A stretch of 43,269 nt of DNA from assembly GCA_029572955.1 (NCBI GenBank), contig JAKPQE010000090.1:1-43269 (forward strand). Direction: 5' to 3'. Both the position numbers and the translations under genes were made by a program. Numbering within the stretch: the stretch's first letter is position 1; the number at the start of each line of letters is the position of its first letter. The notes under the pieces were generated by a model. That model was not told the DNA's origin and did no database searches. It saw only the letters and a list, made by a program, of their open reading frames with translations. The DNA comes from Pseudomonadota bacterium (GTDB taxonomy: Bacteria; Pseudomonadota; Alphaproteobacteria; Rhizobiales; JAKPQE01). This document shows positions 9,125 to 34,943 of this stretch, piece after piece.

Positions 9125-10498
9125 ATGGGTATCTATGGGGCAATGGCGACCGCGATGAGCGGTATGCGGGCGCAGTCTTTCGCTCTCGAGCAGGTTTCCG
9201 GCAACATCGCCAACTCGCAGACGACCGGTTTCAAGCGCACCGAGTCGAGCTTCGTCGATCTGATCCCCGAGGCGCTGCCGACCCGGCAGATCGCCGGCGG
9301 CGTCCAGGCCTATTCGCACGCGACGAACGACGTCCAGGGCGATATCCAGACCTCGGACAGCACCACCTATATCGCGATCAACGGCGATGGCTACTTCGTC
9401 GTGGCCGAAACGGTCGGTCAGGTCGATGGTCGCCCGCTGTTCTCGGGTGTCGATCTCTATACCCGTCGCGGCGATTTCGAACTCGACAAGGACGGCTATC
9501 TCGTCAACGGCGCCGGCTACTACCTCCAGGGCCTGGCGATCGATGCGGCGACCGGCAACGTCTCGGCCAGCGTGCCGTCGCCGATCCAGATCAACAACGA
9601 CTTCCTGCCGGCCGAGCCGACGACCGAGATCGTCTATCGCGCCAACCTCGCGGCCTATCCGCTGACCGCGCAGGCCGACGACACGGTCGCCAACAGCGAG
9701 CTGCTCAACGCCTCGACCTTCGCGGTCGATCCGACGACCGGCGGCGCCGGGACGGTGATTGCCAACGACGTGACGACCTTCCTCGAGCAGTCGATCGCCG
9801 GCGGCGCCATCACGACCTACGATTCGACCGGCGCGCCGGTGAACGTGCAGATGCGCTGGGCCAAGACCGACAGCGTCTCCAATGGCGGCGCCGATACCTG
9901 GAACCTCTTCTACATGACCGACTCGACGGCGACCGGCACCGACGTCGCCTGGCAGAACGTCGGCCAGGACTATGTCTTCGGCAGCAACGGCCAGCTCAAC
10001 CCGGCGATCACCTCGGTTACCATCCCGAGCCTCACCGTGAACGGCGTCTCGCTCGGCAGCATCAACCTGCAGCACGGCAATTACGGCATGACGCAGTATG
10101 CCGATCCGAACGGCACGGCGCAGGTGACCGAGCTCAGCCAGAACGGCACGGCGGCCGGCGAGCTCGTCGGTATCTCGATCTCCGACAATGGCCGCGTCAC
10201 CACCACCTACTCGAACGGCAAGGCGAACGAGATCGCCGAGGTGGTGCTCGCGAGCTTCAATGCCGACAACGCGCTGAAGAAGCTTGACGGCGGCGCCTAT
10301 CAGGCGACCACCGAGTCGGGCATCGCGATCCTCGGCGCCACCGGCGACATCATCGGTGCGGCGATCGAGGCCTCGAACGTCGATATCGCCGACGAGTTCA
10401 CCAAGCTGATCGTCACCCAGCAGGCCTATGCGGCCGGCACGCGGGTGGTCACCACCAGCAACGACATGCTCCAGGAAGTGCTCAACATGGTGCGCTGA
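9125..10498 (+). CDS. flgE: flagellar hook protein FlgE
   Basis: 457-residue structural protein that polymerises into the flagellar hook. N-terminal D0 segment with the flagellar rod/hook signature (VSGNIANSQTTGFKR, about 24-38) and the typical opening MGIYGAM. The C-terminal amphipathic helix (EFTKLIVTQQAYAAGTRVV) completes D0. The middle, with DGYFVV and the acidic beta-rich domains, matches hook proteins rather than the shorter rod proteins. I chose ATG 9125 because it follows AGGAGG (9107-9112) and gives the canonical N-terminus; an open frame further upstream runs through the promoter. First gene of a three-gene operon ending with flgL. Confidence 0.94.
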   Translation: MGIYGAMATAMSGMRAQSFALEQVSGNIANSQTTGFKRTESSFVDLIPEALPTRQIAGGVQAYSHATNDVQGDIQTSDSTTYIAINGDGYFVVAETVGQVDGRPLFSGVDLYTRRGDFELDKDGYLVNGAGYYLQGLAIDAATGNVSASVPSPIQINNDFLPAEPTTEIVYRANLAAYPLTAQADDTVANSELLNASTFAVDPTTGGAGTVIANDVTTFLEQSIAGGAITTYDSTGAPVNVQMRWAKTDSVSNGGADTWNLFYMTDSTATGTDVAWQNVGQDYVFGSNGQLNPAITSVTIPSLTVNGVSLGSINLQHGNYGMTQYADPNGTAQVTELSQNGTAAGELVGISISDNGRVTTTYSNGKANEIAEVVLASFNADNALKKLDGGAYQATTESGIAILGATGDIIGAAIEASNVDIADEFTKLIVTQQAYAAGTRVVTTSNDMLQEVLNMVR

Positions 10499-10535
10499 TC
10501 CTGAGTGATCGACGCGCGAGCAACGGGGGTTAGTA

Positions 10536-12404
10536 ATGGGTCTCTCCGGCGCACTCACCACCTCACTGACCGGTCTTTCGGTGACCCAGAAGGGCATCAC
10601 GACCGTCGCAGGCAATATCGCCAACGCGGACACCGCCGGTTACACCAGAAAGGTGCTTGGCCAGAAGGCCACTGCTGCCGGCGGTGTCGTCATTGGGGCG
10701 CGCCCGACCGAGGTGTCGCGGGCGCTGGACACGCTGCTCCAGCGCCAGATGGTCACCGAGACGGCCGCGGGGAGCTACGCCGACCTCATCGCCACCTACA
10801 CCGACCGGCTCGACCAGGGCTTCGGCGAACCGGGTTCGTCGAGCTCGCTCGATACGATCTACAACGGCTTCCTCGAAGCGGTGCAGGCGCTGACCGCCAG
10901 CCCGAACGACTACTCGACCCAGGTCGAGACGCTCGGCGCGGCGCGCACCCTCGCCAGCCAGCTCAACGCGCTCTCCGACGACATCCAGCAGATGCGCAGC
11001 GACGCCGAGGCCGGCATCGCCGAGGCGGTCGATCAGGCCAACGCGACACTGAAGCAGATCGAGCATCTCAACACCCAGATCGTCTCCTATTCCGGTTCGA
11101 CGGCGATGCCGACGAACCTGCTCGACGAGCGCGACCGCTACATCGCGCAGCTGTCGCAGCTGATGGACATCCGCGTCGTCGGTGGCGAGGGCGGTCCGGT
11201 CTCGATCTTCACGACGAGCGGCGTCGCGCTGTTCGACGGCACCGCCGCCCAGCTCAGCTTCGACCAGCATTCGACGATGACGGCCCAGACCGTCTACAGC
11301 AGCGATCCGTCCGAGCGCGGCGTCGGCACGATCACCCTCGGCATGGGCACGAGCTCGATCGACCTCCTGTCGTCGAACCTCATCCGCTCCGGCTCGATCG
11401 CGGCCTATGTCGAGCTGCGCGACAAGATCCTGCCGGAAGCGCAGAACCAGCTCGACGAGATCGCCAGCGCCCTGGCGCTGTCGCTGTCGAACCGCGAGAC
11501 GGACGGAACGGCGGTCACCTCGGGTGCGCAGGCCGGCTTCTCGATCGACCTTGCCGACCTCAAGGCCGGCAACACGATCAGCGTCTCGGTGACCGATACG
11601 ACCTCGAACACGACGACCAACTACACCTTCGTGCGGGTCGATAGCGCGAGCTCGCTGCCGCTCGACGACAGCCTGACGGCCGACCCGAACGATACGGTGA
11701 TCGGGATCGACTTTTCCGGTGGCTACGCCGCCGCGGCCGCGGCCATCCAGACGGCGCTCGGCGCCGGCTACACGGTCACCAATCCGTCCGGCACGACGCT
11801 CGAATTCCTCGACGACGGCGCCGCCGCCACCACCGACGTCAACAGCGTCTCGGCGTCGGAGACCATCACCTCGCTGACCTCGGGCGGGCCGGAACTGCCG
11901 TTCTTCATGGATGCCGGCAGCACGACCCGCTACTACACCGGCTCCGTCGACGGCTTCGAGCAGAAGGCCGGCTTTGCCGGGCGCATCGCGGTCAATGCCA
12001 GCCTCATCGCCAACCCGACGCTGCTCTCGACCTATTCGACGAGCCCGGCGACGGTGGCGGGCGATGCGACCCGGTCCGAGTTCATCGCCGACCGGCTCTC
12101 GGAGGGCAACAACGTCTTCCAGATGAGCGGCGAGACCAATGGCGCGCGGCTGTTCACCGGCTCGATCGGCGACTACCTGCGCGAGGTCATCGACTATCAG
12201 GGCGCGGCGAGCCAGTACGCGGCGCAGCGCGCCGAGGGGCAGGCGGTGGTCGTCGCCTCTCTGGAAGAGCGCTTCTTCGACGAATCCGGTGTCGAGATCG
12301 ACCAGGAACTCGCCAAGCTGACCACGTTGCAGACGAGCTACGCGGCCAATGCCCGGGTGATGTCCACGGTCAAGGAAATGATCGACATCCTGCTGCAGAT
12401 GTGA
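10536..12404 (+). CDS. flgK: hook-associated protein 1, FlgK
   Basis: 622-residue junction protein between hook and filament, secreted by the flagellar type III apparatus. The N-terminal D0 motif is GNIANADTAGYTRK (about 27-40) and the C-terminal D0 helix ends QTSYAANARVMSTVKEMIDILLQM. Coiled segments around 120-190 and a variable Ser/Thr/Asp-rich centre are typical. A GGGG ribosome site lies just before the ATG. It is 37 bases after flgE and 11 bases before flgL, so it belongs to the same RpoN-driven transcript. Confidence 0.94.
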   Translation: MGLSGALTTSLTGLSVTQKGITTVAGNIANADTAGYTRKVLGQKATAAGGVVIGARPTEVSRALDTLLQRQMVTETAAGSYADLIATYTDRLDQGFGEPGSSSSLDTIYNGFLEAVQALTASPNDYSTQVETLGAARTLASQLNALSDDIQQMRSDAEAGIAEAVDQANATLKQIEHLNTQIVSYSGSTAMPTNLLDERDRYIAQLSQLMDIRVVGGEGGPVSIFTTSGVALFDGTAAQLSFDQHSTMTAQTVYSSDPSERGVGTITLGMGTSSIDLLSSNLIRSGSIAAYVELRDKILPEAQNQLDEIASALALSLSNRETDGTAVTSGAQAGFSIDLADLKAGNTISVSVTDTTSNTTTNYTFVRVDSASSLPLDDSLTADPNDTVIGIDFSGGYAAAAAAIQTALGAGYTVTNPSGTTLEFLDDGAAATTDVNSVSASETITSLTSGGPELPFFMDAGSTTRYYTGSVDGFEQKAGFAGRIAVNASLIANPTLLSTYSTSPATVAGDATRSEFIADRLSEGNNVFQMSGETNGARLFTGSIGDYLREVIDYQGAASQYAAQRAEGQAVVVASLEERFFDESGVEIDQELAKLTTLQTSYAANARVMSTVKEMIDILLQM

Positions 12405-18123: not shown

Positions 18124-19746
18124 TCAGCGACCGACGATTTCGTAGCGCAGCGTCGCCACCGCCCAGGGCCGGACCCTGGTGTTGGCGCCGGGGTCGTCCG
18201 TGTTGCGCGTTCCGCCGAGGGCGGCGGCAAGCCGCGGCAGGTAGTCCTTGACCGCCTTGGCGGCCGGGATCGGCGCCATGCGCTGGTCGCCGACCATCGC
18301 CGGCCAGTCGATCGGCTCGAGCGCGACGAGGGCGACGAGAGTGCCGCTGGTCGGCGCTGTCGCGTCGAAGCGCATGCCGTAATAGGCGTCGGGCACGGTG
18401 ATCGTCGCGCCGCCGCGAATGACGCCGGCGCGGCCGGCATCGCGGGCGAACTGGTTGGGGAAGAGCTGGATCAGCTTGCCGTCGTCGGTGAGGTTGAGGA
18501 GCACGAGCTGGCCGTCGACCGGGCTCGTCACGCGGAAGCGGATGTTGCGCGTGCCGACGCGCACCGGCGAGGGCGGATCCTGATAGAGCACGACGCCGGC
18601 ATCGTTGCCGCCGGCGAAGAAGTCGAGAATCGTGTCGGCATCGACGGTCGTCGCCGGATCGCCGACCGGGTCGCCGCCCGGGCCATCGGCGAAGGCGGCG
18701 GACGGGTCGAGCGTCGGGGTCAGGCCCATCTCGCACTGGTCGGCGTGGCGATTGCAGTAGGCGTCGGACTCGGCGCGCACATAGGCGAGGAGTTCGGCAT
18801 TGGAGATCTCGCCGTTGCGGTTGCGATCGGCGGCCTTGGTCTCGAGGCCCTTCACATAGGCGGCGGTGAAGACGCCGTGATAGTCGGGCGCATCGTCGGT
18901 ATCGATGAGGGCGACCTGGCTCGAGGAGACGGCGGTCCACACGGTGACGCCGGCCGGCGTCTCGCGCGGCGACATCGGCGTTCCCTCCGCCTTCTGCTCG
19001 GCGACCTTTTCCTCGACGACGATCGAGCGGAACTTCTTCAGGTTCGGCGTGCGGCCGGCCTTGCCCGGGCCGAGCGGGGAGGCCGAGCGCGTCACCGTGC
19101 CGGAATGGCAGGAATCGAAGACGACCGTCGCGGCCCGGTCGGAGAGGGCCTTGAAGGCGATGCCGAGTTCGTCGTCGGTGATCATGCCGACGACGCTGTT
19201 CTCGGTCTCGCCCTCGACGATCCTGGCGTCGTGCGGAACGATCGTCTCGTCGGTGCCGTCGGCCTCGTCGCCATTGTCGTCGGCCTGATAGAAGCCGTGG
19301 CCGACATAGAAGAAATAGGTGCGCTCGCCCGGCTCTGTGCCGCCGGCGAGCCAGTCGCGGATGCCGCCGAGGATCGCCTGCTTGGTCGCCGCGCTGTCGA
19401 TGAGGACGCGGATGTCGCGTTCGGCAAAGCCGAGCGTGCCGGTCAAAAGGCGCTTCATATTGCCGACATCGCGGGCCGAGGCGCCGGGGATCTCGAAGGA
19501 GAGCCGGTCATCGGCATAGACGTCGATGCCGACGAGAAGGGCCTTGTCGGCGAGCGCCGGGGCCGGGGCGAGGGCGGCAGAGAGTGCCGCGAGGGCCGAA
19601 AGGGCGAGGGAGGAGAGGGTGGTGAGCGGCGCAAGCCGAAGCTTCGCGAGGGCAGGCAGGACCGCCGACTCGAGAGCGGATCGCGCGCCGCGCGCACCGG
19701 GGGGTGTTCCGCGGCGCAATCCCCAGCCAAAGGCACGATCCGACAT
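18124..19746 (-). CDS. exported caspase-fold protease (peptidase C14) with EF-hand-like loop and DUF4384-like domain
   Basis: 540 residues. A long n-region precedes a signal-type hydrophobic stretch (LSSLALSALAALSAALAPAPALA, cut near residue 67). The caspase p20-like domain follows: LVGIDVYAD, catalytic His150 in YFFYVGHG, and catalytic Cys213 in VVFDSCHSG. A loop DRNRNGEISNAE (307-318) matches the EF-hand calcium loop (D-x-N-x-N-G-x-I-S-x-x-E). The C-terminal DUF4384-like domain is at about 390-480. GGGGAGG stands 8-10 bases before the chosen ATG; a longer frame upstream lacks such a site. First gene of the leftward operon with the haem protein (73-base gap) and the OmpA-like protein. Metacaspase-type cleavage after basic residues is known for relatives, but the substrate here is unknown. 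Confidence 0.9.
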   Translation of the reverse strand: MSDRAFGWGLRRGTPPGARGARSALESAVLPALAKLRLAPLTTLSSLALSALAALSAALAPAPALADKALLVGIDVYADDRLSFEIPGASARDVGNMKRLLTGTLGFAERDIRVLIDSAATKQAILGGIRDWLAGGTEPGERTYFFYVGHGFYQADDNGDEADGTDETIVPHDARIVEGETENSVVGMITDDELGIAFKALSDRAATVVFDSCHSGTVTRSASPLGPGKAGRTPNLKKFRSIVVEEKVAEQKAEGTPMSPRETPAGVTVWTAVSSSQVALIDTDDAPDYHGVFTAAYVKGLETKAADRNRNGEISNAELLAYVRAESDAYCNRHADQCEMGLTPTLDPSAAFADGPGGDPVGDPATTVDADTILDFFAGGNDAGVVLYQDPPSPVRVGTRNIRFRVTSPVDGQLVLLNLTDDGKLIQLFPNQFARDAGRAGVIRGGATITVPDAYYGMRFDATAPTSGTLVALVALEPIDWPAMVGDQRMAPIPAAKAVKDYLPRLAAALGGTRNTDDPGANTRVRPWAVATLRYEIVGR

Positions 19747-20151
19747 CGCCAGTCCTCCCCTTGTCGTTTCCGCCTGCCGGCCCGCCGTCTCGGCGGCGCT
19801 TTCCGGCCTTGCAGCCTGCTCCAGTGCGGCAAATCCGCACCGCGCCGTCAAGCCCGCAGCGCGCGCATTCACCCGGCGCCGCACCGGCTTCGGCCGCCTT
19901 GGCGCCGGCATCCGCCGCCTGATGCCCGCAACGCGCGCACCCAGCGAAAGCCGGCAATGACGGCCGCTGACGGCCCGTCCTTTCAGCCGTCACAGCGAGG
20001 CGTTGGACCTGCTCGGCGAGCAGCCCCTCACGGCGCGCTGCGATGATAGCCGATTCCCTTCTGGAAAGCGGGGGCGGGGTTTGGGGGGCGTTTGGGATTG
20101 CGCGCGGTGCAACTGAAACGATAAGATGACTTAATATGGAGCCGATGAAAA
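19747..20151. other. 405-base gene-free stretch upstream of the caspase operon
   Basis: No open frame here has family support; the frames seen are shadows of GC-rich codon bias. The left part is GC-rich and should hold the promoter of the leftward caspase operon, though I found no convincing -35/-10 pair. Base composition changes abruptly near 20105, from GC-rich to AT-rich, which I take as the left edge of the foreign segment carrying the ATPase gene. No direct repeat marking that edge was found by eye. Confidence 0.5.
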
Positions 20152-21417
20152 TCAAATAACGTTGGAATTATACCCTCTACCGTCAATAATATTACCGATT
20201 GCTTCAACAAGCTGTTCGCGAAATTCAAGCTTCTCCTCTTCAGGTGTCAACTCGGTAACAACCCGAGAGACCAATTCATGCTCCACACGTACTTTGTCAC
20301 GCCTCTCACTATTTATGGCAATGAGTCCCATAGCAACTAGGTCCCCCAACGCATTTGCGACGGCCGCATGCTCGATGCCGATGTTTAGGGCTTTCAGAGC
20401 CGTATGTACTTGAGCTATTGATATGCCGCCCAAAAGGAAAACAACAAGACGCAAAACCAAATTCTCTATAGAGCCTAGCGATTGAATTACATTCTCATAA
20501 GATGATGCGGTGATCAGATCTGGTTGACTGCTCTTTCTTTCCGACAAAAACTTGAGCTGAAACCATACGTATTTAAGATTTCCGTCGCTGCGCCGATGAA
20601 TTACTTTAGACAATTGTTCGTGATCAGATCGATCTGGCAGCACGGCACGAACAAGAACAAGAACATCGGATTGCGTGGCGTTGCTCAGATTGAGATCTTC
20701 GATCGACCCGCGTGACTCAATGGGTCTCCAATTGAGCTTACTTCCGGAAGTCACTCTTTCAACAAGAATTAGACGAAATTTTCGACCGCATTTCGTCAAT
20801 TCTCGTTCAATAAATTCTCGAGAAAGGCTGGAAATAAATTGAACATTATCAAGCACAAGCAAGACTGGTTGCTGCTGGGAAAGTTTGACTATGAAGCGCA
20901 AAGACTGAAGGTCATCGCTATCTTTCTGTGTCTTGCCTGGCAGTATCGACGGCAAGAATGCCTTGATAAACGGCCCAACGACAGGAATTTGAGCGGTGAG
21001 GTCACGAGCGACGCCGTAGCCGTAAGTCTTATGCCACGTCGTCGAGTTGGTCCTTGTGCGTCTCCAGCGAGCCGCGGTCTCCTCTGTAACAAACTGAGGA
21101 TGCGACCGGGTTGGGTGCGTGGCGCCCTGCAAGATTTGGTCAATCTTTCTAAAAATTCCCGAGGACTCAAGTTCGGAGGGGGGAGTATCAATATAAATAG
21201 CTAATTTAACTTCGGACCTAGATGCAATACGACACAGAAGGTCGCGCGCAAAGAACGATTTTCCCGTTCCTGATTCGCCAAATATTCGCAGAATACGTGG
21301 TTCAGATGCCGATTTTGCTGTCAGAAAACTAAAGAATTGCTCCATATCTTTTTCGCGAAGCGCGAAAGGCCACGCTTCTTCTGACTGGAATGGGTTTTGC
21401 GTAGCCAGCGCAGGCAT
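20152..21417 (-). CDS. STAND/AAA-like ATPase in AT-rich, probably acquired DNA
   Basis: 421-residue soluble NTPase. Walker A is GESGTGKS (47-54) and Walker B is PVLLVLDN (184-191). After the ATPase core, segments such as SGSKLNW and LSNATQSDVLVLVRAVL resemble the helical and winged-helix parts of STAND/AAA_16 proteins (about 220-420). It has no long C-terminal repeat sensor, so it is shorter than typical STAND signalling proteins and may be a minimal or truncated version. Base composition and codon use differ sharply from all GC-rich neighbours. It lies 18 bases after the tyrosine recombinase gene on the same strand, suggesting a mobile pair. No effector gene follows within the AT-rich patch. 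A defence role is a guess from architecture and context. Confidence 0.75.
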   Translation of the reverse strand: MPALATQNPFQSEEAWPFALREKDMEQFFSFLTAKSASEPRILRIFGESGTGKSFFARDLLCRIASRSEVKLAIYIDTPPSELESSGIFRKIDQILQGATHPTRSHPQFVTEETAARWRRTRTNSTTWHKTYGYGVARDLTAQIPVVGPFIKAFLPSILPGKTQKDSDDLQSLRFIVKLSQQQPVLLVLDNVQFISSLSREFIERELTKCGRKFRLILVERVTSGSKLNWRPIESRGSIEDLNLSNATQSDVLVLVRAVLPDRSDHEQLSKVIHRRSDGNLKYVWFQLKFLSERKSSQPDLITASSYENVIQSLGSIENLVLRLVVFLLGGISIAQVHTALKALNIGIEHAAVANALGDLVAMGLIAINSERRDKVRVEHELVSRVVTELTPEEEKLEFREQLVEAIGNIIDGRGYNSNVI

Positions 21418-21435: not shown

Positions 21436-22518
21436 TTATCCGCCAATGACCCTCCTCAAGGTTTCCGCGCCGGTGATGGCCTGTTTCAGGCTCTCGTCGG
21501 TGACGTGGGTGTAGATTTCCGTCGTCGAGATCGAGCGGTGGCCGAGGAGGCGCTGGACGAAGCGGATGTCGACGCCGGCCTCGAGGAGGCTGGTCGCGGC
21601 CGAGTGGCGCAGCATGTGCGGCGTGATGCGGCGCGTGATGCCGGCTTCGACGGCGAGGCGGCGCAGGGCGTGGCGAATAGCGGCGGTCGAAAGCGGCGTC
21701 CCGGTGCGGGTGGCGAGCAGCGGCGCTTGGGCCGAGTGCCGGTCGGCCTGGGCGCCGGAAGCGGCGTGGCGGCTCGTACCGGCGAACGTGTTTGCGGCGG
21801 AGCCATCGGCCGGGCGTGAGTTTGCTCCAGTGGCGGCGGTGCAGGATGTGCCTGAGAGATTGTCGGGGGCCGAAAGGGCGCCGGCGGCGGAGAGGGCGCC
21901 GGCGCCGTCCGGCAGCGGGGTATTCGGGTGCGGCGCCGGTCCGTCGAGATAGGCGGCGAGTTCGGCGACGACCTCGTCGGAGGTGAGGAAGACCTGCCGC
22001 TCGCGATTGCCCTTGCCGCGGACGCGGATCGTGCGACGGTCGAGATCGAGATCGCCACGCCGGAGGGTGGCGAGTTCGCCGACGCGCATCCCCGTCGTGA
22101 AAAGCAGCAGCACGGCGAGGGCGATCGCCGGGCTGGCCGTCGGGCGCTGGCGGAACAGGGCTCGGAGTTCGGCGGCGGTGAGGCAGCGCGGCAGGCGGCG
22201 CGGGAGGCGAATGCAGATTTCCGCCGTGCGGAACGGCGACTGCGCGACGAGGCCGCGGCGCTCGGCCCAGGCAAAGAACGCCCTGAGGCAGGCGAGACGC
22301 CGCTTCACGGTGGCCGGCGCGAGGCCGCGCTCGCCCGCCAGCCACTCGGCATAGGCGGCAAGGGCGTCGGCATTCAGCGGCAGTTCGCGCGCCGTCTCGA
22401 CGCAGTATCGACGGACCTCGGCGATGTCCTGACGATAGGCTTTCAGCGTATTCGCGGAGAGGTTGCGGCCGGTCTGGCAATGGCGCAGAAATGCAACGGC
22501 GGTCGTCGACAGGTCCAT
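21436..22518 (-). CDS. Xer-like tyrosine recombinase with a low-complexity insert
   Basis: 360-residue site-specific recombinase. The N-terminal SAM-like DNA-binding domain spans about 1-95. The catalytic domain shows Arg145 ([17 protein letters not shown]), Lys169 (GKGNRERQV), His301/Arg304 ([15 protein letters not shown]), His327 ([15 protein letters not shown]) and Tyr336, so all active residues are present. The [15 protein letters not shown] form resembles XerC/XerD and integron-type enzymes rather than phage integrases. Residues about 192-266 are an Ala/Ser/Gly/Pro-rich insert between the beta hairpin and the C-terminal helices, absent in standard Xer proteins, which are about 300 residues. 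GC content matches the host, unlike the adjacent ATPase. Probably the enzyme that brought in the neighbouring ATPase; that is inference. Confidence 0.88.
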
Positions 22519-24393: not shown

Positions 24394-25629
24394 ATGGCAA
24401 GAAATTGGAAACACCGGTCCACCGAACATGTGTTTTCAAGAAACATTCTCTATGTGTTGGTTTTTCTCTATTTTCTGCTATTTTTCTCAGCGGTAATTTT
24501 TGGTTGGTATGAATTCCTGAAGAATGCAATGGCAGGATTTGATTTTGCATATCATGCTTTTGTGATTTTTATTGTTGTATTTCTTGTTTGGGTATTCTCA
24601 CGTCATGCCGGAAAAGGGATTTTCTATTGGTGGGGCGGGGAAAGAAATGTCCTATCGTTGCCGCTGATGTCGATGCTCTTGCTTTTCGGGGTCAGTGCCA
24701 TCGGGGTAATCAATGCATATCTGAGGTTCGTCGAAGCTCCGCAGATCATGCGCCAGGAGATCGACGACAGCCTAAATGCCGTCGCGGATTTCCGAACGAG
24801 GGCCACCGCGACGCTGCGCGATCCGGAAATCGAGCAGTTGGAGGCATTCGTCCGAATGAAGAAAGCGGCACTTGTCAGTGAAATCAACAACGCTAACGGA
24901 GGGCGATGGTGCGGTGTCGGCCCTGGCGCGTTGGCGATTCTGGCGGAAGTCAGGCGAGTCCTCCCGGATGTTGTCGAATTGCGGGGCTCGAAAAAGCAGC
25001 ATGACTGCAGTGCGGTCGATGATCTCCGCCGCATTGCGACGGCATATGAAAACCTCATCGATCAGGCCCTTCAGAGTCATCCATCCTACCTGAGTTCGAA
25101 CATCGCGATGAAACGCAGCGTCATCGGGAGAATCGATTCCGAGACGCGGGATCTGGAGGGAGGGCTGAAAGATAAGGCGGCGGAGATCGGCGGGTATTCT
25201 GACTTCTATGACAATTATCAGGTGTATCTCGGCGCTCTATCGTTTCTCCGTGACGTCGAGGGGCGTTATTCGGCGCTCTATCGGCAGGTGCGCAGTCTCA
25301 CCGGCGAGGAGGTTGCAGGCGCACCTCAGACGCTGAAATTCGAGCGGACAAGGCAGCTGTCGAACCTGGGAAGCGTCTTTCAGTCGTTGGTAACCCAACT
25401 CTGGCTGGGGACGAACAGGTGGCGCCTTGTCCTGTTCTCCATCATCGCTTTGGCCTTCGACAGCGCGACCGCCGTCGGTATGGCCTTGGCGTTCGATGCA
25501 GGCTACCGCCGCTCTCTGCGTCGCAGATCACCGAGTTGTTTCCGTATTGGCGGCGCAGATGTGAACTGTCTGCTGCCAGCGTTGGACTTTGTGGTCGGTG
25601 ATCCGAGTGCCCGGGCAGCCGAGGAGTGA
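24394..25629 (+). CDS. cassette protein A: polytopic membrane protein with large periplasmic-type domain
   Basis: 411 residues, unrecognised. Three N-terminal membrane helices (about 18-38, 52-70, 88-110), then a roughly 230-residue mostly helical soluble region (about 112-340), then a fourth helix (about 343-366) and a short basic tail. Positive residues suggest the N-terminus and tail are cytoplasmic, putting the large region outside; it contains Cys173 and Cys205, which could form a disulphide. ATG 24394 (MARNWK) is preferred; an in-frame GTG at 24370 adds eight residues, and neither has a strong ribosome site. The first 300 bases are strikingly AT-rich. The GTPase-like gene starts 21 bases after its stop, so it heads a three-gene operon. 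Confidence 0.75.
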   Translation: MARNWKHRSTEHVFSRNILYVLVFLYFLLFFSAVIFGWYEFLKNAMAGFDFAYHAFVIFIVVFLVWVFSRHAGKGIFYWWGGERNVLSLPLMSMLLLFGVSAIGVINAYLRFVEAPQIMRQEIDDSLNAVADFRTRATATLRDPEIEQLEAFVRMKKAALVSEINNANGGRWCGVGPGALAILAEVRRVLPDVVELRGSKKQHDCSAVDDLRRIATAYENLIDQALQSHPSYLSSNIAMKRSVIGRIDSETRDLEGGLKDKAAEIGGYSDFYDNYQVYLGALSFLRDVEGRYSALYRQVRSLTGEEVAGAPQTLKFERTRQLSNLGSVFQSLVTQLWLGTNRWRLVLFSIIALAFDSATAVGMALAFDAGYRRSLRRRSPSCFRIGGADVNCLLPALDFVVGDPSARAAEE

Positions 25630-25650
25630 CTTGGAGATGAGGACGCAGCG

Positions 25651-26790
25651 ATGAATGACGTTAACGCAAGCCAGATGCGCGACGATGTTGGCGACTTCCT
25701 GCGGACACCGTTTCCCGGAATCACACTCGGCAGCGAAAACCCTGTACCGCCGTCATTCGACCAGGACTCGCTGCGCCAATTTGTCAAACATCTCAACGAA
25801 AAGAGTGTTCATCCCGTCCTCGTGTTCGGCACTGGTGGTTCCGGCAAGACGATGATGCTGCATTCGCTGATCGCCTATGCCAGGGCGGAACCTGATGCCC
25901 ACTTGCATGTGTCGCTCGGGGAGCCCGTGTTCCCGAAGTCGTTTCGCGATCATGGGCAGCGCTACCTCGAAGCGCAGAAATTCTTCAATCAAGAGAATGT
26001 TGCCTTCATTTCGAAACGAGAAATCCCACGGTTCTCCAACCGAAACACCCCGTTCTTTATTCCGATCGAAGCCGTAGCCGGCGAGCGCCAAGTGACGTTC
26101 GCGTTCCTTGAAGGCAGCGGCGATTGGTATCATCGCGGCGAAGACGCTGCCGAGTACCAGGACTTCAAGGCGGAGATCGCATCCATTCTGGAGCTTTTCC
26201 AGAGCGGGTTGTCCGTGATTTTCGTGGCCCCAGTCATGTCGAACGACATCTATCCGGGGGAGGTCGGCGATGTCAGTTTCAGCAGCGAGTGCATGGGGGC
26301 GGTAATCGAGCAGTATGGCCGCTTGCGCTTCGGGAAGGCTCGGGATCGTGCCTTGCTTCTCCTGTCGAAGTGGGACCAGTTCGTCGATCCGGCCGCAGAT
26401 CTGGCGGAGTTTGCATCGCCGGGACCGGATACGCTCATGGCAAGACTGGCGGAGCTTCAGTTCGTGTGGCCAGCGTTCGCCGGGCTGAAGGGGCTGGAAC
26501 CCGGCGCGAGATCATTGACACCTTATGCAGCCGCCTACGTCCGGGAGGGAGGCATGCAGGACCTGTCGCGCTACAAGAAGTATTTCGACCGATACAACCG
26601 AGGACTCTGGAATTGGTTGTTCGAGGGCGCGCGGTCGAATGGCTGTTTGAAGGGCGGCAAGGGCACCGACGGGCCACTCTATCCGGACGTGGCACTGACG
26701 ACTCCTAAGGCGTCGTTGGATCTGAGTGGCCTGCTTGGAACCTTCGCCAACGTGTCGGATTCTGATTTTCCAGTCGAAACAGTAGAATAG
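25651..26790 (+). CDS. cassette protein B: GTPase-like P-loop protein
   Basis: 379-residue soluble protein. Walker A (G1) is GTGGSGKT (60-67) after a hydrophobic strand HPVLVF. A strand with FAFLEGSGDW (150-159) stands where GTPases carry the G3 region, and LLLLSKWDQF (235-244) resembles the G4 base-recognition motif N/TKxD with Ser in first place. These point to a divergent TRAFAC-type GTPase rather than an AAA+ ATPase. C-terminal third is helical without known motif. A GAGGACG ribosome site precedes the ATG. It is flanked closely by membrane proteins A and C. Similar GTPase genes occur in multi-gene bacterial conflict systems described by comparative genomics, but homology to a specific one cannot be shown here. 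Confidence 0.75.
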   Translation: MNDVNASQMRDDVGDFLRTPFPGITLGSENPVPPSFDQDSLRQFVKHLNEKSVHPVLVFGTGGSGKTMMLHSLIAYARAEPDAHLHVSLGEPVFPKSFRDHGQRYLEAQKFFNQENVAFISKREIPRFSNRNTPFFIPIEAVAGERQVTFAFLEGSGDWYHRGEDAAEYQDFKAEIASILELFQSGLSVIFVAPVMSNDIYPGEVGDVSFSSECMGAVIEQYGRLRFGKARDRALLLLSKWDQFVDPAADLAEFASPGPDTLMARLAELQFVWPAFAGLKGLEPGARSLTPYAAAYVREGGMQDLSRYKKYFDRYNRGLWNWLFEGARSNGCLKGGKGTDGPLYPDVALTTPKASLDLSGLLGTFANVSDSDFPVETVE

Positions 26791-26801
26791 CGTGACCGGC
26801 A

Positions 26802-28289
26802 TTGGACATTCTGATCTGCGACACCCTCAACGGCCACAAGGCCCGCTTCGTCACTGACAACGATTGTCCATCTGGCATGCGGGACTACTTCCTCGGGCAT
26901 GCAATGCTGGATAGTAGCGATTTCGCCTTCGATCGGGAGGAGGGCTCGGTCTTTGTCGTCTATCGGGTCAAGGCCGGCCAGTCGGTATACACGTGGGTTA
27001 GCTTCTACTGCTCGATGCCGAGCAACATGAGTGCGCGCCGTGGCGGGTATTTCGGTGTCGCCGCAATCCTCAACGGCACCTCGGCCGAGGGACGCCTGTC
27101 GACTGTTTTGTCACGGATGGCGACCTCGATGTTCGACGTCCTGCGCAATGCCGATGCCCATCGATGGACGGTCGATGTCTCAGCTGTCCGGAGCGCATGG
27201 GAACCCGAGCGTTTGCTGGATGAGGCATACGGATGCGAGTTCGAGTTCCGAGCAACAGGCGGAATCTCGTTCGATGGCAACGGTCAACGGATCTACTGCC
27301 TTTGCCGGCATTCGGGGATCGGCAGTGCCGACGATATTCTGACCCGCCTTCTCGACAATCGCCGGTATGCCATATTCGGACGGGCCGTGCTCTCGAGCGA
27401 TCAGCGTCTGTTTGGCACTCTTCGGAAGCTGCCGAAGGTGAGCGGTCAGGTCTTGGATTTCGTGACGAACGGCGCTTCCGAGATTGAAGATGCGCTATCG
27501 GAGGTGGTGGCGTCCCCGATGCGGCAAGGCACGGCGCTCGAACCGATACGCCCGGATGCGATGATGCAGATCAACAGGCAATACGAAGAACTGACAAGGT
27601 ATATCGCAACGGTCGATCGAAAGATCGAGCAGATCGGCAGACAGTACGAAAGACTGATGGCTGCCAATGAATGGCGGGGAGGGACAGACAACGATTACGC
27701 CTTCGATCGGCTGGACGTCGGGCAAGACAAAGGTAGCAAAGCTCGGGGTCTTGGCCCGAGGAGCTGGTTCGCAGGCTGGGTCGCCCGACTGGTACACTAC
27801 GGTCCTGTCGCAGCCTTTGGTGTTCTGTTGGCGGCCGTCTTCGTCATTGTGTGGCCGCTGCTGGACAACCCAGGTAATCTGGGGACCCGTCGCAATACGC
27901 CGGGGGCGACTCCTGATGCCTTGACCGGCGGCCCATTTCCCGAACCGAACTACCGCTCGCCTTTCAGGGATGTGATCGTAGAGCAATTGTCGAGCGAGGG
28001 AATGAAGGGTTCCGTTGCCGGTGCAAATGGCGTCGGCGATGCCGCATTGCCTGGTGATCCACAGGGAGCCGCGATCGCGTGTGACGATCCCGATACGCAG
28101 CTTTTCGTCAGTTCCAAGCTCAGCGTCATGATGCACGATATTGACGTTTTCTTCGAGGATGGGAACCTCAAGAACCTATACATGCGGATGGGTTTCGAAC
28201 TGATCGACGTCTACGAGTTCGGCAGGCAGTGCTATGGGATCAACGCTCCCGTCGTGCAGCCGCCGGCGCGGCCTGGGCGAGCGCATTGA
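26802..28289 (+). CDS. cassette protein C: single-span protein with cytoplasmic domain, coiled coil and periplasmic domain
   Basis: 495 residues, unrecognised. Residues 1-250 form a soluble domain with blocks FVVYRVKAGQ, SARRGGYFGVAAIL (78-90) and a Cys pair in IYCLCRH (165-170). A likely coiled coil covers about 255-290 (YEELTRYIATVDRKIEQIGRQYERL region, positions 261-285). One membrane helix lies at about 335-354 (PVAAFGVLLAAVFVIVWPLL), after which the rest (355-495) should be periplasmic and holds Cys427 and Cys477. The start is TTG at 26802: a stop at 26793-26795 closes the frame just upstream and the next ATG is about 75 bases in. The gap to gene B is only 11 bases. Probably receives or transmits a signal across the membrane with A and B. 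Confidence 0.7.
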   Translation: MDILICDTLNGHKARFVTDNDCPSGMRDYFLGHAMLDSSDFAFDREEGSVFVVYRVKAGQSVYTWVSFYCSMPSNMSARRGGYFGVAAILNGTSAEGRLSTVLSRMATSMFDVLRNADAHRWTVDVSAVRSAWEPERLLDEAYGCEFEFRATGGISFDGNGQRIYCLCRHSGIGSADDILTRLLDNRRYAIFGRAVLSSDQRLFGTLRKLPKVSGQVLDFVTNGASEIEDALSEVVASPMRQGTALEPIRPDAMMQINRQYEELTRYIATVDRKIEQIGRQYERLMAANEWRGGTDNDYAFDRLDVGQDKGSKARGLGPRSWFAGWVARLVHYGPVAAFGVLLAAVFVIVWPLLDNPGNLGTRRNTPGATPDALTGGPFPEPNYRSPFRDVIVEQLSSEGMKGSVAGANGVGDAALPGDPQGAAIACDDPDTQLFVSSKLSVMMHDIDVFFEDGNLKNLYMRMGFELIDVYEFGRQCYGINAPVVQPPARPGRAH

Positions 28290-28638: not shown

Positions 28639-30234
28639 TCAGCTGCCCGAGGTATAGATCGCGGCGATGCCGACCTGGAAGCGCTTGCCGGCAAGCAGCG
28701 AGCGCAGCGTGTCGGCAAGCGCGGCGGCCTTGTCGGGCGTTGCCATCTGCTTCAGCGCGGCATGGAGCGCGGGCATCGGCTCCTCGGTAAGGATGGCGAC
28801 GAGGTGTTCGGCGCCATAGGGCGGGTTCTTCACCTCGAAGCGCTCGGAGAAGACGCGCTCGCGCCAGTCGACGGCTTCCTCGCGGGAATTGGCGGGCAGG
28901 AAGAACTCGACGCGGCCGTTCGGCGGCAGGTTGAACATGGTGAGATAGGGCAGCGCCGGTTCGGCCATGGTGATGTGGACCTGCTCGCCGACGCGGTAGG
29001 TCTGGTTGCCGCTCTGCAGCGAGAGTTCGGCCGGATTGACGCCGGCATTGTCCTTCAGGAAGGCGAGCGCCGACCATTTCGAGAGCACGGCGCGCAGGTC
29101 GTCGAAGGAGCCGACATTCTCGGCGACCGGGCCGCCGATACGGTGCTCGACGACGCCGGTCGTGCGGTTCCAGACGAGGTCGGCACGGGCCGGGTCGGTG
29201 ACGACCTCGACGTGGGCGACCTCGCCGATGCGCGGCTCGGCAGCACCGACGACGGCGACGGCGAGATCGGCGCCGGCGGCCTCGGCGGCGGGCGTTGCCG
29301 CGCCGCTCGTCGCGATGCGGCCGATCACCGGGTCGTCGCCGGGACGCAAGGGGCTGATCTGCGGCGTCTGCTGGCCTTCCGCCTCGGCCTCGACGGCCGG
29401 CACGAGGAACGACAAGAGCTCGAGCTGGGTGAGGTTGCCGTCGCGGTTGCGGTCGGCGGCGCCCTCGAGGGCGCGCGAGAAGGCCCAGGACAGGGCGCCG
29501 CGCGGCGTGCCGTCGATGAGGATTTCCGGGGTGAGCCGGCTTTCGAGGGTGGCGCCGATGAAGGTCACGTATTTCGTGTCTTCCTCGGACTTCGTCGCGA
29601 CGTCCGGCGGCGGCATCTCGAGGACGTCGCTGGCAAGGTCGAGATCGCCGAACTTGCCGTTCCGGAACTTGACGCCGGTGGCGCTGGCGCCGCGGTTCAT
29701 CGTTCCCGAATGGCAGGAATCGGCGACGAGCACGACCTTCACGCCCTTCTGGTCGGCGGCGAGCAGCCATTCGTAGATTTCGTCGTCGACGATGCGCTCG
29801 GCGGTGCCGGGGCCGTTCGGCGTATAGCCGGCGAGCAGGAAGTTCTCGTTCTTGCCGTCTGCCTCGCCGTTGCGGCCCGGCGGCTCGGGCTCCTGGCCGC
29901 CATGGCCGGCATAGGAAAAGACGATGGTATCGCCGGGGGCGGCGCCGGCGAGAAGGCTCGACCAGTTCTCGGCGATGGCGCGCTTGGTCGCCTGGCCGTC
30001 GACGAGCGTGACGATGCGGGCGGCGCCCGCCTTCTTCAGGGCACTGGCGATGTCGCGCGCGTCATTGACGGCGCCGTTGAGGTCGTTGGCGGTGCCGATG
30101 TAGTCGTCGATGCCGACGACGAGGCCGTAGACCGCGGCGGCGGCCGGCGCCGTCGCGGCGCAGAGGAGGCCCGTCGCCATCAATGCCAGGGGCAGTGCCC
30201 GCCGACCTGCCGTCCCGATCCTTGCGAGGCGCAT
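28639..30234 (-). CDS. second exported caspase-fold protease with EF-hand-like loop and DUF4384-like domain
   Basis: 531 residues with a Sec signal (LPLALMATGLLCAATAPAAAA, cut near residue 34). Caspase domain: LVVGIDDYIG, catalytic His111 in FSYAGHGGQ, catalytic Cys174 in LVADSCHSG. A calcium-type EF-hand loop DRNRDGNLTQLE (261-272) follows the protease domain at the same relative place as in the first caspase. A DUF4384-like domain lies near 400-490 (LQSGNQTYRVGEQVHI ... LTMFNLPPNGRVEFFLPAN). The start at 30234 is chosen because GAGGGGGAG lies about seven bases upstream; an in-frame ATG at 30252 lacks such a site. The next gene upstream, 110 bases away on the same strand, is a dihaem cytochrome c. 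Paralogue of the protease at 18124-19746. Confidence 0.9.
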   Translation of the reverse strand: MRLARIGTAGRRALPLALMATGLLCAATAPAAAAVYGLVVGIDDYIGTANDLNGAVNDARDIASALKKAGAARIVTLVDGQATKRAIAENWSSLLAGAAPGDTIVFSYAGHGGQEPEPPGRNGEADGKNENFLLAGYTPNGPGTAERIVDDEIYEWLLAADQKGVKVVLVADSCHSGTMNRGASATGVKFRNGKFGDLDLASDVLEMPPPDVATKSEEDTKYVTFIGATLESRLTPEILIDGTPRGALSWAFSRALEGAADRNRDGNLTQLELLSFLVPAVEAEAEGQQTPQISPLRPGDDPVIGRIATSGAATPAAEAAGADLAVAVVGAAEPRIGEVAHVEVVTDPARADLVWNRTTGVVEHRIGGPVAENVGSFDDLRAVLSKWSALAFLKDNAGVNPAELSLQSGNQTYRVGEQVHITMAEPALPYLTMFNLPPNGRVEFFLPANSREEAVDWRERVFSERFEVKNPPYGAEHLVAILTEEPMPALHAALKQMATPDKAAALADTLRSLLAGKRFQVGIAAIYTSGS

Positions 30235-30344
30235 CGCGTTTCTCCCCCTCATCAGGTCTGTCCCGGTGCCGCGCGGCGGCGCGCGGCCAGTCTATGCCAA
30301 TCTCTGGCGAGCATGGAACGGGCAGGACGGGAAAAGGCGGGCGA

Positions 30345-32067: not shown

Positions 32068-32334
32068 GTGGTTTCCCTTCTGTCTCGGACCGTCCGGGGG
32101 GTGGAGGTCGCGTCGAACTCGATTTCCGACAAGCTGGTTTCGAACCGTCCTGCGCGGGAAGGATGGCGTCGGCCGGCCGTGCGACAAGGTGACAAGGTCA
32201 CTGTGGCAGTGAAATGGCGGACGTCGCATTCGACGTTTCGCTCGGCTGGCGTTATGCTTCCAAAAAAGCAAAGAAAACGGCCGTATCTGCCGGAATTCGG
32301 CGATCGGCGGGACAGCGCAGGGGGCGTTTTTTCC

Positions 32335-34104
32335 ATGCCTGGCAAGCCATCGATCACGCAGATGTTACCGGTTCTGGCGCTGATCGGCGTTCTGATCGCC
32401 GGCCTCGTCGGCGCGAGCGGCGCCCGCGCCGAGCAGCGGCTCGCCCTCGTCGTCGGCAATTCCGCCTACACCAAGGTCTCGGCGCTGCCCAATCCGGTGA
32501 GCGACGCCAAGCTGATCGCCGATTCCCTGACCAGGGCGGGCTTCGACGTCACCGTGGCGCTCGACGTGACGCAGCGCGACCTGAAGCGGGCGGTGCGCGA
32601 CTTCTCGCAGAAGCTCGAGAGCACCGGACCGGACGGCGTCGGGCTCTTCTACTATGCCGGCCACGGCCTGCAGGTGAACGGCACCAACTATCTCGTGCCG
32701 GTCGATGCCGGCATCGAGACCGAGGGCGACGTCGCGATCGAGACGGTCAGCCTCAACGACGTGATGTCGGCGCTCGCCTTCTCGCGGGCGCGGCTCACCT
32801 TCGTGGTGCTCGATGCCTGCCGCGACAATCCCTACAAGCGCGGCTTCCGCTCGGTGCAGCGCGGTCTTGCGCTCGTCGATGCGCCGCGCGGCTCGCTCAT
32901 TGCCTATGCCACGTCGCCCGGCGACGTCGCCGCCGACGGATCGGGCGCCAACAGCCCCTATACGGCGGCGCTCGCCGAACTGATGGACGAGCCGGGCGTG
33001 CCGGTCGAGCAGGTGTTCAAGAAGGTGCGCATCCGCGTCGCCGAGGCGACCGACGGCAAGCAGCTGCCCTGGGAGAGTTCGTCGCTGACCGGCGACTTCT
33101 ATTTCAAGACGGGCGCGGCGGCCGACGGTGGCGGTTCGGCGACGGTGACGCCGCCGCCGGTCGAGACGAAGCCGGTGACGGGCGGCGAGCCGCAGCAGGG
33201 CATGGCGGCCGACGCCGAGCTCGCCTATCTCGACGCCATCGCGGCAAACGATTCGGACAGCTATCGCCAGTTCCTCGCCGACCATCCGGGCTCGCCGCGG
33301 GCCGAGCAGGTGCGGCGCATCCTGCAGTCGCAGGTCGAGAACGAACTCTGGAAGAACGTTTCCGACGAGAACTCGGTGGCGAGCTACCAGCGCTATCTCG
33401 CGGCCTTCCCGAAGGGCATCTATGCCGAGGAGGCGGGCCAGCGGATGGCGGGGCTGCTCAATCCGGGCTCGCGGCCCTCGGTCGGCGCCGACACGGGCGG
33501 CGCGTCGGACGCGGACACGAGCAGCGGGGCGGATACGGGCGGGGCGGACACCTCGGCGGGCCTTGCCGGTCCCGGCACGTCGGACGACGGGCAATGCGGC
33601 CATCCGCACGGCAACTGGCGGGTCATCGACATCCAGGACTGGGACACGCTCTTCGTGCGCTCCGGGCCGGGCAAGAGCTACGACCACATCGACGATCTGC
33701 CCTACGACGCGACCGGCGTCGGCATCGTCCGCTGCCGCAGCGTCTCGGGCTATTCGCAGCCGTGGTGCGAGGTCCGCTACAAATGCGTCACCGGCTGGGT
33801 CTACCAGCGCTACCTCGTCGAGGGCGGTCCGGTCGACCGGTCCGGACCGACGCAGGCGAGCGCCGGCGGCAGCTACCATGTCGTCGACGTCGGCGCCAAC
33901 GACGTTCTCAACGTGCGCGCCGGGCCGGGAACGCAATACGACCTCGTCGGCACAATTCCGCCCAATGGCAGTGGCATCGAATTGCGCAGCTGCCGTTCGG
34001 TCTCCGGCCAGCGGTACAAGTGGTGCATCGTCAAATACAGGTCGGTCGAAGGCTGGGCCTCGGGCTGCTGCCTCGCCGATTCGAGCGGTCGGAAGATCCA
34101 ATGA
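32335..34104 (+). CDS. third exported caspase-fold protease, with two SH3-like domains
   Basis: 589 residues with a Sec signal (MLPVLALIGVLIAGLVGASGARA, cut near residue 32). Caspase domain about 33-258: LALVVGNSAYTKVSALPNPV, catalytic His110 in LFYYAGHG, catalytic Cys162 in VVLDACRDNP. A helical-repeat segment (about 290-375), an Asp/Gly/Ala-rich linker (about 380-418) and two bacterial SH3-like domains (about 428-494 and 514-581, each with V-R-S/A-G-P-G near the start and a CRSVSG block) follow. SH3b domains usually bind peptidoglycan. It lacks the EF-hand loop and DUF4384 of the other two. A GGGGGC stretch precedes the ATG; longer frames upstream are unlikely. Its stop overlaps the start of a D-Ala-D-Ala dipeptidase gene, tying it to wall metabolism. 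Confidence 0.9.
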   Translation: MPGKPSITQMLPVLALIGVLIAGLVGASGARAEQRLALVVGNSAYTKVSALPNPVSDAKLIADSLTRAGFDVTVALDVTQRDLKRAVRDFSQKLESTGPDGVGLFYYAGHGLQVNGTNYLVPVDAGIETEGDVAIETVSLNDVMSALAFSRARLTFVVLDACRDNPYKRGFRSVQRGLALVDAPRGSLIAYATSPGDVAADGSGANSPYTAALAELMDEPGVPVEQVFKKVRIRVAEATDGKQLPWESSSLTGDFYFKTGAAADGGGSATVTPPPVETKPVTGGEPQQGMAADAELAYLDAIAANDSDSYRQFLADHPGSPRAEQVRRILQSQVENELWKNVSDENSVASYQRYLAAFPKGIYAEEAGQRMAGLLNPGSRPSVGADTGGASDADTSSGADTGGADTSAGLAGPGTSDDGQCGHPHGNWRVIDIQDWDTLFVRSGPGKSYDHIDDLPYDATGVGIVRCRSVSGYSQPWCEVRYKCVTGWVYQRYLVEGGPVDRSGPTQASAGGSYHVVDVGANDVLNVRAGPGTQYDLVGTIPPNGSGIELRSCRSVSGQRYKWCIVKYRSVEGWASGCCLADSSGRKIQ

Positions 34105-34943
34105 TGCGAGGGCGCTGCGAGCCCATCCGTCCTGCCGGTATGCTTGCCGCGGCGCTGCTCACGCTCGTCGTGGCGGCGATCGCGGCGCCGGCGAGCGCCG
34201 GCGATGCCGCGGCCAACGCCAAGGCGGCCGGTCTCGCCGACCGCTTCGTGTTCCTGCGCGACGTCGACCCGACGATCCTGCAGGACATGCGCTATGCGGG
34301 GCGGCACAATTTCGTCGGCGAGCGCATCGACGGCTACGAGGCGGCCGAATGCATCCTCACCGAGCCGGCGGCGCGCGCCCTGAAGCGCGTGCAGGACGAG
34401 CTGCGCGGCCGGGGTCTTTCGCTGAAGGTCTACGACTGCTACCGGCCGGCGCGGGCGGTCGCGCATTTCGTGCGCTGGGCCGAGAAGGCCGGCGACCAGG
34501 GCATGAAGGCCGAATTCTACCCGAAGGTCGACAAGGGCAAGGTCTTCGCCCTCGGCTATATCGCCCGCCGCTCCGGCCATTCCCGCGGCAGCTCGGTCGA
34601 TTTGACAATCGTCAAGTTGCCGCCGGCCTTTCAACCCGACTATCTGCCCGGCGAGCCGCTCACCGCCTGCACGGCGCCGGTCGGCGAGCGATATCCGGAC
34701 AACGGCCTCGACTACGGCACCGGCTACGACTGCTTCGACGACAAGAGCCACACCGGCAGCACGGCGGTCGGCGCAGAGGCGCGGGCGAACCGCAAATTCC
34801 TCGTCGAAGCGATGCGCAGGGCGGGTTTTTCCAACTACGCCAAGGAATGGTGGCACTACGATTTCGGCAAGCCGCCATATCCGAAGACCTATTTCGACTT
34901 CCCGGTGACGGCTCACCCGGAGGCGATCCCGGGAGCGCAGTAG
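34101..34943 (+). CDS. exported VanX/DdpX-like D-alanyl-D-alanine dipeptidase
   Basis: 280 residues, peptidase M15D. A signal sequence (MLAAALLTLVVAAIAAPASA, cut near residue 33) sends it to the periplasm. Zinc and catalytic residues are visible: Arg in VYDCYRPARA, His and Asp of SGHSRGSSVDLTI, and Glu-x-x-His in KEWWHYDF. VanX-type enzymes cleave free D-Ala-D-Ala, either to recycle wall peptide or in glycopeptide resistance; no van regulatory or ligase genes are nearby, so recycling is likelier. ATGATG offers starts at 34101 and 34104; the first overlaps the caspase TGA by four bases, showing translational coupling. Confidence 0.9.
   Translation: MMRGRCEPIRPAGMLAAALLTLVVAAIAAPASAGDAAANAKAAGLADRFVFLRDVDPTILQDMRYAGRHNFVGERIDGYEAAECILTEPAARALKRVQDELRGRGLSLKVYDCYRPARAVAHFVRWAEKAGDQGMKAEFYPKVDKGKVFALGYIARRSGHSRGSSVDLTIVKLPPAFQPDYLPGEPLTACTAPVGERYPDNGLDYGTGYDCFDDKSHTGSTAVGAEARANRKFLVEAMRRAGFSNYAKEWWHYDFGKPPYPKTYFDFPVTAHPEAIPGAQ

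What the first reader, a model, noticed from the sequence alone, without database searches (positions are those of the whole stretch)
24394..28289. Unrecognised three-gene cassette: membrane protein, GTPase-like protein, transmembrane adaptor
Genes A, B and C are separated by only 21 and 11 bases. A has four predicted membrane helices and a large outside domain. B has a P-loop (GTGGSGKT) with GTPase-like FLEGSGDW and SKWD segments. C has a cytoplasmic domain, coiled coil, one membrane span and a periplasmic tail. The set is AT-richer than its surroundings and lies among other insertions. It looks like a transferred trans-envelope signalling or defence system that I cannot match to a named one.
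Basis: partly seen in the sequence, partly recalled or inferred. Interest (0 to 1): 0.85.

Follow-up and report, generated by a model that had tools for sequence, protein, structure and literature searches.

The report
Orphan membrane-linked GTPase gene trio
Three tightly packed, foreign-looking genes encode a many-span membrane protein, a GTPase-type switch distantly related to GTPases of predicted bacterial conflict systems, and a one-span membrane adaptor; the set matches no named system and may be a new envelope-linked defence switch, but its function is unproven.

Summary
Same-strand genes A (24394-25629), B (25651-26790) and C (26802-28289) are 21 and 11 bases apart, AT-richer than the flanks (GC3 0.62-0.70 against 0.85-0.90), with the stated topology. 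None reaches a Pfam, PADLOC, NCBIfam or PHROGs family.

One distant homologue (24-27% over ~220 residues, E 1.4e-9) turned up in another genome of the class and keeps G1, G3 and G4. A profile of the two aligns with DO-GTPase2 over the whole G domain; with the P-loop masked, 0 of 150 shuffles reach the score. The G4-G5 stretch of B also aligns with RsgA. B is best read as a TRAFAC-class GTPase, nearest DO-GTPase2 of the profiles tested but below that family's cut-off; the profile also recognises ordinary TRAFAC GTPases.

C as GAP1 was tested: not significant. Best reading: a horizontally acquired membrane-anchored GTPase-switch cassette that works like a DO-GTPase/GAP1 conflict system. Defence is inferred, not shown.

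The parts
24394..25629 (+). gene A: polytopic membrane protein, 411 aa, four hydrophobic spans, large outside domain with two cysteines
   Evidence: open frame, hydropathy, charges; no family match; no match in the 239 other genomes of a class sample
24427..24732 (+). A membrane spans 1-3 (residues 12-42, 45-74, 85-113)
   Evidence: hydropathy
24733..25422 (+). A outside (periplasmic) domain, residues 114-343; Cys 173 and 205
   Evidence: hydropathy, charges; all-helical in a low-confidence model (mean pLDDT 45)
25423..25494 (+). A membrane span 4 (residues 344-367)
   Evidence: hydropathy
25651..26790 (+). gene B: TRAFAC-class GTPase, 379 aa, distant relative of DO-GTPase2
   Evidence: homologue in G691, profile comparison, RsgA alignment
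25828..25851 (+). G1 / P-loop GTGGSGKT (B 60-67)
   Evidence: sequence; GAPGSGKT in the homologue
26104..26127 (+). G3 FLEGSGDW (B 152-159)
   Evidence: FLESPGEM in the homologue; lines up with DxxGE of DO-GTPases
26365..26376 (+). G4 SKWD (B 239-242)
   Evidence: TKFD in the homologue; SAWD in 14 of 17 DO-GTPase1; NKWD of RsgA in register
26802..28289 (+). gene C: single-span adaptor, 495 aa, N-terminal soluble domain, coiled coil, one span, outside tail with two cysteines (427, 477)
   Evidence: open frame, hydropathy, heptads; no family match
27567..27656 (+). C coiled-coil stretch, residues 256-285
   Evidence: heptad pattern
27789..27875 (+). C membrane span, residues 330-358
   Evidence: hydropathy

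Best explanation
A-B-C is a horizontally acquired cassette built round a GTPase switch. Shown: the three genes form a tight same-strand block of foreign composition; A and C have membrane spans; B carries a TRAFAC-type G domain, distantly related to the DO-GTPases of predicted bacterial conflict systems. Inferred: the genes are co-transcribed; B sits on the inner face of the membrane, held by the soluble domain and coiled coil of C; the outside domains of A and C (two cysteines each) read a signal or damage in the envelope; GTP loading or hydrolysis by B is passed through C to A, which alters the membrane (pore or stress effector), most likely to stop phage spread. In mode of action this is like a membrane-bound DO-GTPase/GAP1 system, with C in the role of GAP1 and A as sensor or effector; membership in that family is not claimed.
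For: B homologue in G691 with all motifs, E 1.4e-9. B+homologue profile against 20 DO-GTPase2 sequences: B 34-250 aligned, probability 95%; with the P-loop masked, score 30.5, 0 of 150 column shuffles reach it (maximum 22.7). The homologue alone reaches PF19993 DO-GTPase2 at E 0.0048, below cut-off. RsgA G4-G5 in register with B 229-302. Tight spacing and shared foreign composition. In the passages read of PMC7159879, 67% of the DO-GTPase systems have components with membrane spans and GAP1 itself can be fused to them. The homologue is patchy: absent from the 5 other genomes of its genus that were searched, and lies between genes with a KAP NTPase and a CHAT domain, domains that I recall from conflict systems.
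Against: No homologue of A or C in the sets searched (A; C), so the unit cannot be shown to travel together; the B homologue lies without A or C. C against GAP1-N1: score 13.5, reached by 38 of 200 shuffles. The 95% probability leans on the P-loop: shuffles that keep it reach up to 94.0%, though none of 150 reaches the score, and the masked match itself has a probability of only 16-17%. B alone, P-loop masked, is marginal against DO-GTPase1 (5 of 200; 14 of 250), and the pair against DO-GTPase1 gives 3 of 150. The DO-GTPase2 profile also recognises ordinary TRAFAC GTPases, so the resemblance is not specific to conflict systems. The PDB profile search is led by AAA P-loops (midasin). No named defence system matches.
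Confidence: 0.4

Rival explanations
1. B is an AAA/STAND-type ATPase, not a GTPase, and the G3/G4 resemblance is chance.
For: Pfam matches of B are all weak P-loop families such as FtsK_SpoIIIE, ATPase_2 and AAA_16; the PDB profile search is led by AAA modules.
Against: With the P-loop masked, DnaA, FtsH and RecF score 12-13 against B+homologue, and DO-GTPase2 scores 30.5-31.9 with 0 of 150 shuffles reaching it; [ST]K[WF]D is kept in the homologue; RsgA match.
Confidence: 0.12
2. The cassette is an envelope or secretion accessory set (housekeeping or niche adaptation), not defence.
For: Two of three proteins are membrane proteins; no named defence system matches.
Against: B is absent from the 100 relatives searched and from nearly all genomes of three further samples; atypical composition; no secretion family reaches its cut-off.
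Confidence: 0.25
3. A, B and C are neighbours that do not form one system; B is a GTPase that takes different partners elsewhere.
For: Its only homologue carries pentapeptide repeats and other neighbours, with no A or C.
Against: Gaps of 21 and 11 bases, one strand, similar composition.
Confidence: 0.18
4. Chance open frames or decayed genes.
For: No close homologues; low-confidence structure predictions.
Against: Long frames with the codon-position GC pattern of coding sequence (third 0.62-0.70, second 0.42-0.46), intact motifs, coherent topology, a homologue of B.
Confidence: 0.03

Closest known systems
DO-GTPase2 (PF19993) / DO-GTPase1 (PF19975) of GTPase-centric conflict systems (PMC7159879, passages read)
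   Same: TRAFAC-type G domain; acid after the G of G3 (DxxGE there, ExxGD here); SAWD in 14 of 17 DO-GTPase1 against SKWD here; three of the DO-GTPase1 read also have E in place of D in G3; often membrane-linked
   Different: Not listed by Pfam for B, and below cut-off for its homologue; no second GTPase, GASH or GAAD effector recognised in the cassette; partners A and C not recognised
GAP1-N1 (PF20012) protein
   Same: Encoded just downstream of the GTPase; the block RRGGYFGVAAIL of C lines up with RPGCVWTHALLL of GAP1
   Different: Similarity not significant (38 of 200 shuffles); C is shorter than the GAP1 proteins read and has its own coiled coil, span and outside tail
RsgA and Era-type TRAFAC GTPases
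   Same: G4-G5 segment in register with RsgA
   Different: The match of B+homologue to a seven-domain Era/Der/MnmE/ObgE/HflX/FeoB profile is weaker than to DO-GTPase2 (masked 19.1 against 31.9; the profiles differ in size)
Unnamed protein of genome G691 (L055:8494-9924)
   Same: G domain 24-27% identical, all motifs
   Different: Pentapeptide-repeat N-terminus, different neighbours, no A or C detected

Membership tests
DO-GTPase (PF19993/PF19975) | Score over the curated cut-off | tested here: not met
   B not listed for either at E up to 1; its homologue 17.0 bits against cut-off 27; four true members scored 167-254 bits. Searches of the own genome with both families found nothing at E 0.001 (in one search 39 of 59 candidates were scored)
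DO-GTPase (PF19993/PF19975) | Profile-level relation over the whole G domain | tested here: met
   B+homologue, P-loop masked, 0 of 150 shuffles reach the score for DO-GTPase2; but ordinary TRAFAC GTPases also match that profile, so this is not specific
DO-GTPase (PF19993/PF19975) | Conserved acid after the DxxG of G3 | tested here: met
   LEGSGD in B, LESPGE in the homologue; D in place of E in B
GTPase-centric conflict system | GAP1 protein downstream of the GTPase | tested here: not met
   C has no GAP1 match in Pfam and no significant profile similarity
GTPase-centric conflict system | GASH (N1 type) or FNIII (N2 type) component | tested here: not met
   A and C have no such Pfam match; A against a GASH profile has probability 0.3%
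GTPase-centric conflict system | Paired paralogous GTPases (reported for 38% only) | tested here: not met
   single GTPase in the cassette; not a strict requirement
TRAFAC GTPase | G1, G3 and G4 motifs in order, with a guanine-type G4 | tested here: met
   GTGGSGKT, LEGSG, SKWD and their counterparts in the homologue and, for G4, in RsgA
TRAFAC GTPase | GTP binding and hydrolysis | not testable with these tools
   needs purified protein
Named anti-phage system | Match to a PADLOC model | tested here: not met
   A and C none; B only short P-loop matches, best E 0.0024

The most novel reading that the evidence does not exclude
First example of a trans-envelope branch of GTPase-switch conflict systems, in which a DO-GTPase-like switch is wired directly to a polytopic membrane protein and a single-span adaptor with disulfide-capable outside domains, so that an envelope signal drives (or GTP hydrolysis gates) a membrane effector.
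Probability: 0.27. Interest if true: 0.7.

Novelty: new variant of a known kind. Interest (0 to 1): 0.48.

Why it matters
GTPase-centred conflict systems were predicted from sequence in 2020 (PMC7159879); the listings I saw (one search showed 20 of 2,419 papers) did not show an experimental follow-up, which is not proof that none exists. A three-gene, membrane-wired relative would be a small, clonable way to test how such a switch senses and acts, and B with its homologue extends the group to proteins that current family models miss.

Tried and rejected
Homologue searches that led nowhere: tblastn of B, C and A in plasmids and of B in phages. The weak plasmid hit for C (Sinorhizobium, E 0.2) overlaps the end of a frame that by eye looks glycosyltransferase-like, and was taken as chance. 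Single-protein pattern scans: B in viral and genome contigs, C and A in viral contigs; A and C were not scanned by themselves in genome contigs. Motif-steered scans and a scan with B+homologue found nothing either; metagenomes were not searched. P-loop matches in G463, G1047 and G680 and a chance match in G376 were read and dropped.

Structure: AlphaFold2 on B and on A as single sequences gave mean pLDDT 33 and 45, too poor for a fold search, so none was run. C was not folded.

C as GAP1: unproven. A as GASH: no. The caspase gene 28639-30252 as part of the cassette: rejected, because G001 carries its orthologue next to the orthologous cytochrome gene, without A-B-C. DO-GTPase1 family search in 142 class genomes rang nowhere, controls included, so it says nothing about absence. 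In the control the mask missed one of the P-loops of L025 (an ABC protein), so that row is no control. Rfam found only four tRNAs in the window.
Full report
What is there. Three open frames on the + strand, A 24394-25629, B 25651-26790 and C 26802-28289, are separated by 21 and 11 bases. Their GC (0.54-0.59) and third-position GC (0.62-0.70) stand apart from seven neighbouring genes (0.68-0.74 and 0.85-0.90); an eighth, at 20152-21417, is odder still (0.47 and 0.45). A has four hydrophobic spans and a 230-residue stretch between spans 3 and 4; charges put that stretch outside, though the charge bias is modest. C has an N-terminal soluble part, a heptad stretch at about 256-285, one span at 330-358 and an outside tail. 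No sigma-70-like promoter was found and terminator-like sites were at chance.

Setting. The cassette lies between two caspase-like genes (18124-19911 and 28639-30252, both on the - strand) that are 8.7 kb apart here. Their best matches in genome G006 (L019) lie 29 bases apart on one strand; in G011 (L020) a caspase-type gene also follows directly, with weaker matches. In the only other genome of the same family that was sampled (G001, L018) the caspase orthologue (41-42% identical) sits beside the orthologous cytochrome gene; of 21 window frames tested against the 16 kb held, four matched (the caspase, the cytochrome and two frames beyond it), and A, B, C, the XerD-like, ZnuA-like, DUF2946 and STAND-like genes did not. 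So the 8.7-kb stretch looks inserted, possibly in more than one step, since its XerD-like, ZnuA-like and DUF2946 genes have host-like GC. No repeat listed looks like an attachment site (20 of 37 direct families and 25 of 27 inverted pairs were shown).

Known families. Pfam, PADLOC, NCBIfam and PHROGs give nothing for A, nothing beyond chance for C, and only weak P-loop matches for B. tblastn of A, B and C in 72,556 plasmid records and of B in 50,697 phage records finds no relative. Genome samples, own genome included in each count: B in 101 relatives, 385 class, 397 order and 254 phylum genomes (the sets overlap); C in 398 phylum genomes; A in 240 class genomes. Outside the own genome, B had 1 match (G463), 1 (G1047) and 4 (G691, G632, G680, G376); only G691 is a homologue over the domain. 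C and A had none. Only B was scanned in the 84,980-species genome collection, twice, without success; these scans need near-exact short peptides.

The relative of B. In G691, of the same class, a 476-residue protein (L055:8494-9924) matches B over residues 31-250 at 24-27% identity, E 1.4e-9 in that genome and 4e-11 against the stretch. It keeps the P-loop (GAPGSGKT), the G3 block (AFLESPGE for AFLEGSGD) and the G4 block (LLLLTKFD for LLLLSKWD), and carries pentapeptide repeats in front. It overlaps an upstream gene by 4 bases; a downstream frame (9936-10655) has an R-x4-H stretch (RNAALH) that I recall as HEPN-like, with no Pfam match and only a weak PADLOC match to BrxC. A KAP NTPase gene and a CHAT-domain gene lie on either side. 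The protein was absent from the 5 other genomes of its genus searched. No A or C relative lies within the 19.9 kb held. Of the other matches, G376 is chance, G680 a P-loop ATPase, and G632 RsgA, whose G4-G5 segment (NKWDQ...) aligns in register with B 229-302, 38% identical, pair E 2e-7. It was picked as one of the best matches among 254 genomes (E 0.0018 there), so it is support and not proof.

Which GTPases. Canonical DO-GTPase2/DO-GTPase1/GAP1-N1/GASH loci were taken from two genomes of the same order and from plasmids (Pfam check of 10 proteins of two loci). B alone scores mainly through the P-loop: against DO-GTPase1, 95 of 200 shuffles that keep the P-loop reach its score, and with the P-loop masked 5 of 200 do, or 14 of 250 with a wider family. 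Adding the homologue changes this: B plus homologue against 20 DO-GTPase2 sequences aligns over B 34-250 with probability 95%, and with the P-loop masked scores 30.5 against shuffles of mean 14.0 and maximum 22.7, 0 of 150. The 95% itself leans on the P-loop: shuffles that keep it reach 94.0% (score at most 57.6 against 60.9, 0 of 150), and the masked match has a probability of 16-17%. Against DO-GTPase1, masked, 3 of 150 shuffles reach the score. Masked comparisons of B plus homologue with DnaA, FtsH and RecF score 12-13, and with a small profile of seven Era/Der/MnmE/ObgE/HflX/FeoB domains 19.1, where the best of 100 shuffles reached 22.9. The DO-GTPase2 profile also matches those seven ordinary domains, masked scores 18-43. 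The safe claim is TRAFAC-class GTPase, nearest DO-GTPase2 of what was tested; membership in DO-GTPase is not met, since the Pfam cut-off is not reached.

C and A. The block RRGGYFGVAAIL of C lines up with the GAP1-N1 block RPGCVWTHALLL, and the profile comparison picks that register by itself, but 38 of 200 shuffles score as well. C as GAP1 is thus an analogy. A does not match GASH. Structure prediction of B and A without relatives failed.

How it most likely works. Shown: a GTPase-type protein encoded between two membrane proteins in one tight, foreign block. Inferred: B is the switch, C ties it to the membrane through its coiled coil and span, and A and C present outside domains that could sense the envelope, with A as the likely membrane effector. 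DO-GTPase/GAP1 systems, in the passages of PMC7159879 that I read, are often membrane-linked and have variable effectors; this cassette may work like a reduced version of such a system. Defence is a guess from that likeness, from patchy occurrence and from composition; no tool result shows it.

Literature seen: passages of PMC7159879, and search listings only for the rest. None of these listings showed a paper on this trio; the searches used words of the GTPase-system literature, since the trio has no name to search for.

Noticed in passing
window 20152-21417 (-): A 47% GC gene for an AAA_16/STAND-like ATPase, the lowest in GC of the genes measured, next to a XerD-like recombinase gene (21436-22518).
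   Followed up: partly
window 18124-19911 and 28639-30252 (-), and 32386-32673 (+): Caspase-like (Peptidase_C14) genes cluster here, with a third weak match inside the frame 32214-34943; several also lie close together in G006.
   Followed up: partly
L047 and L048 (Mesorhizobium and Rhizobium plasmids); similar frames in L049 and L050: DO-GTPase/GASH loci with a GAP1 annotated as EAD1-bearing, followed by a caspase-family gene; DO-GTPase1 there has E instead of D in G3 (PEYGGE in L047, L048, L050).
   Followed up: partly
L055:7517-10655: Set in G691: a gene with a possible HTH, the pentapeptide-repeat GTPase homologue, and a protein with an R-x4-H stretch recalled as HEPN-like, between a KAP NTPase gene and a CHAT-domain gene; looks like another undescribed conflict set.
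   Followed up: partly
L043 (Aliivibrio salmonicida plasmid): DO-GTPase locus beside a gene annotated as RADAR RdrB, with an IS30 transposase gene just before the annotated GASH gene.
   Followed up: no
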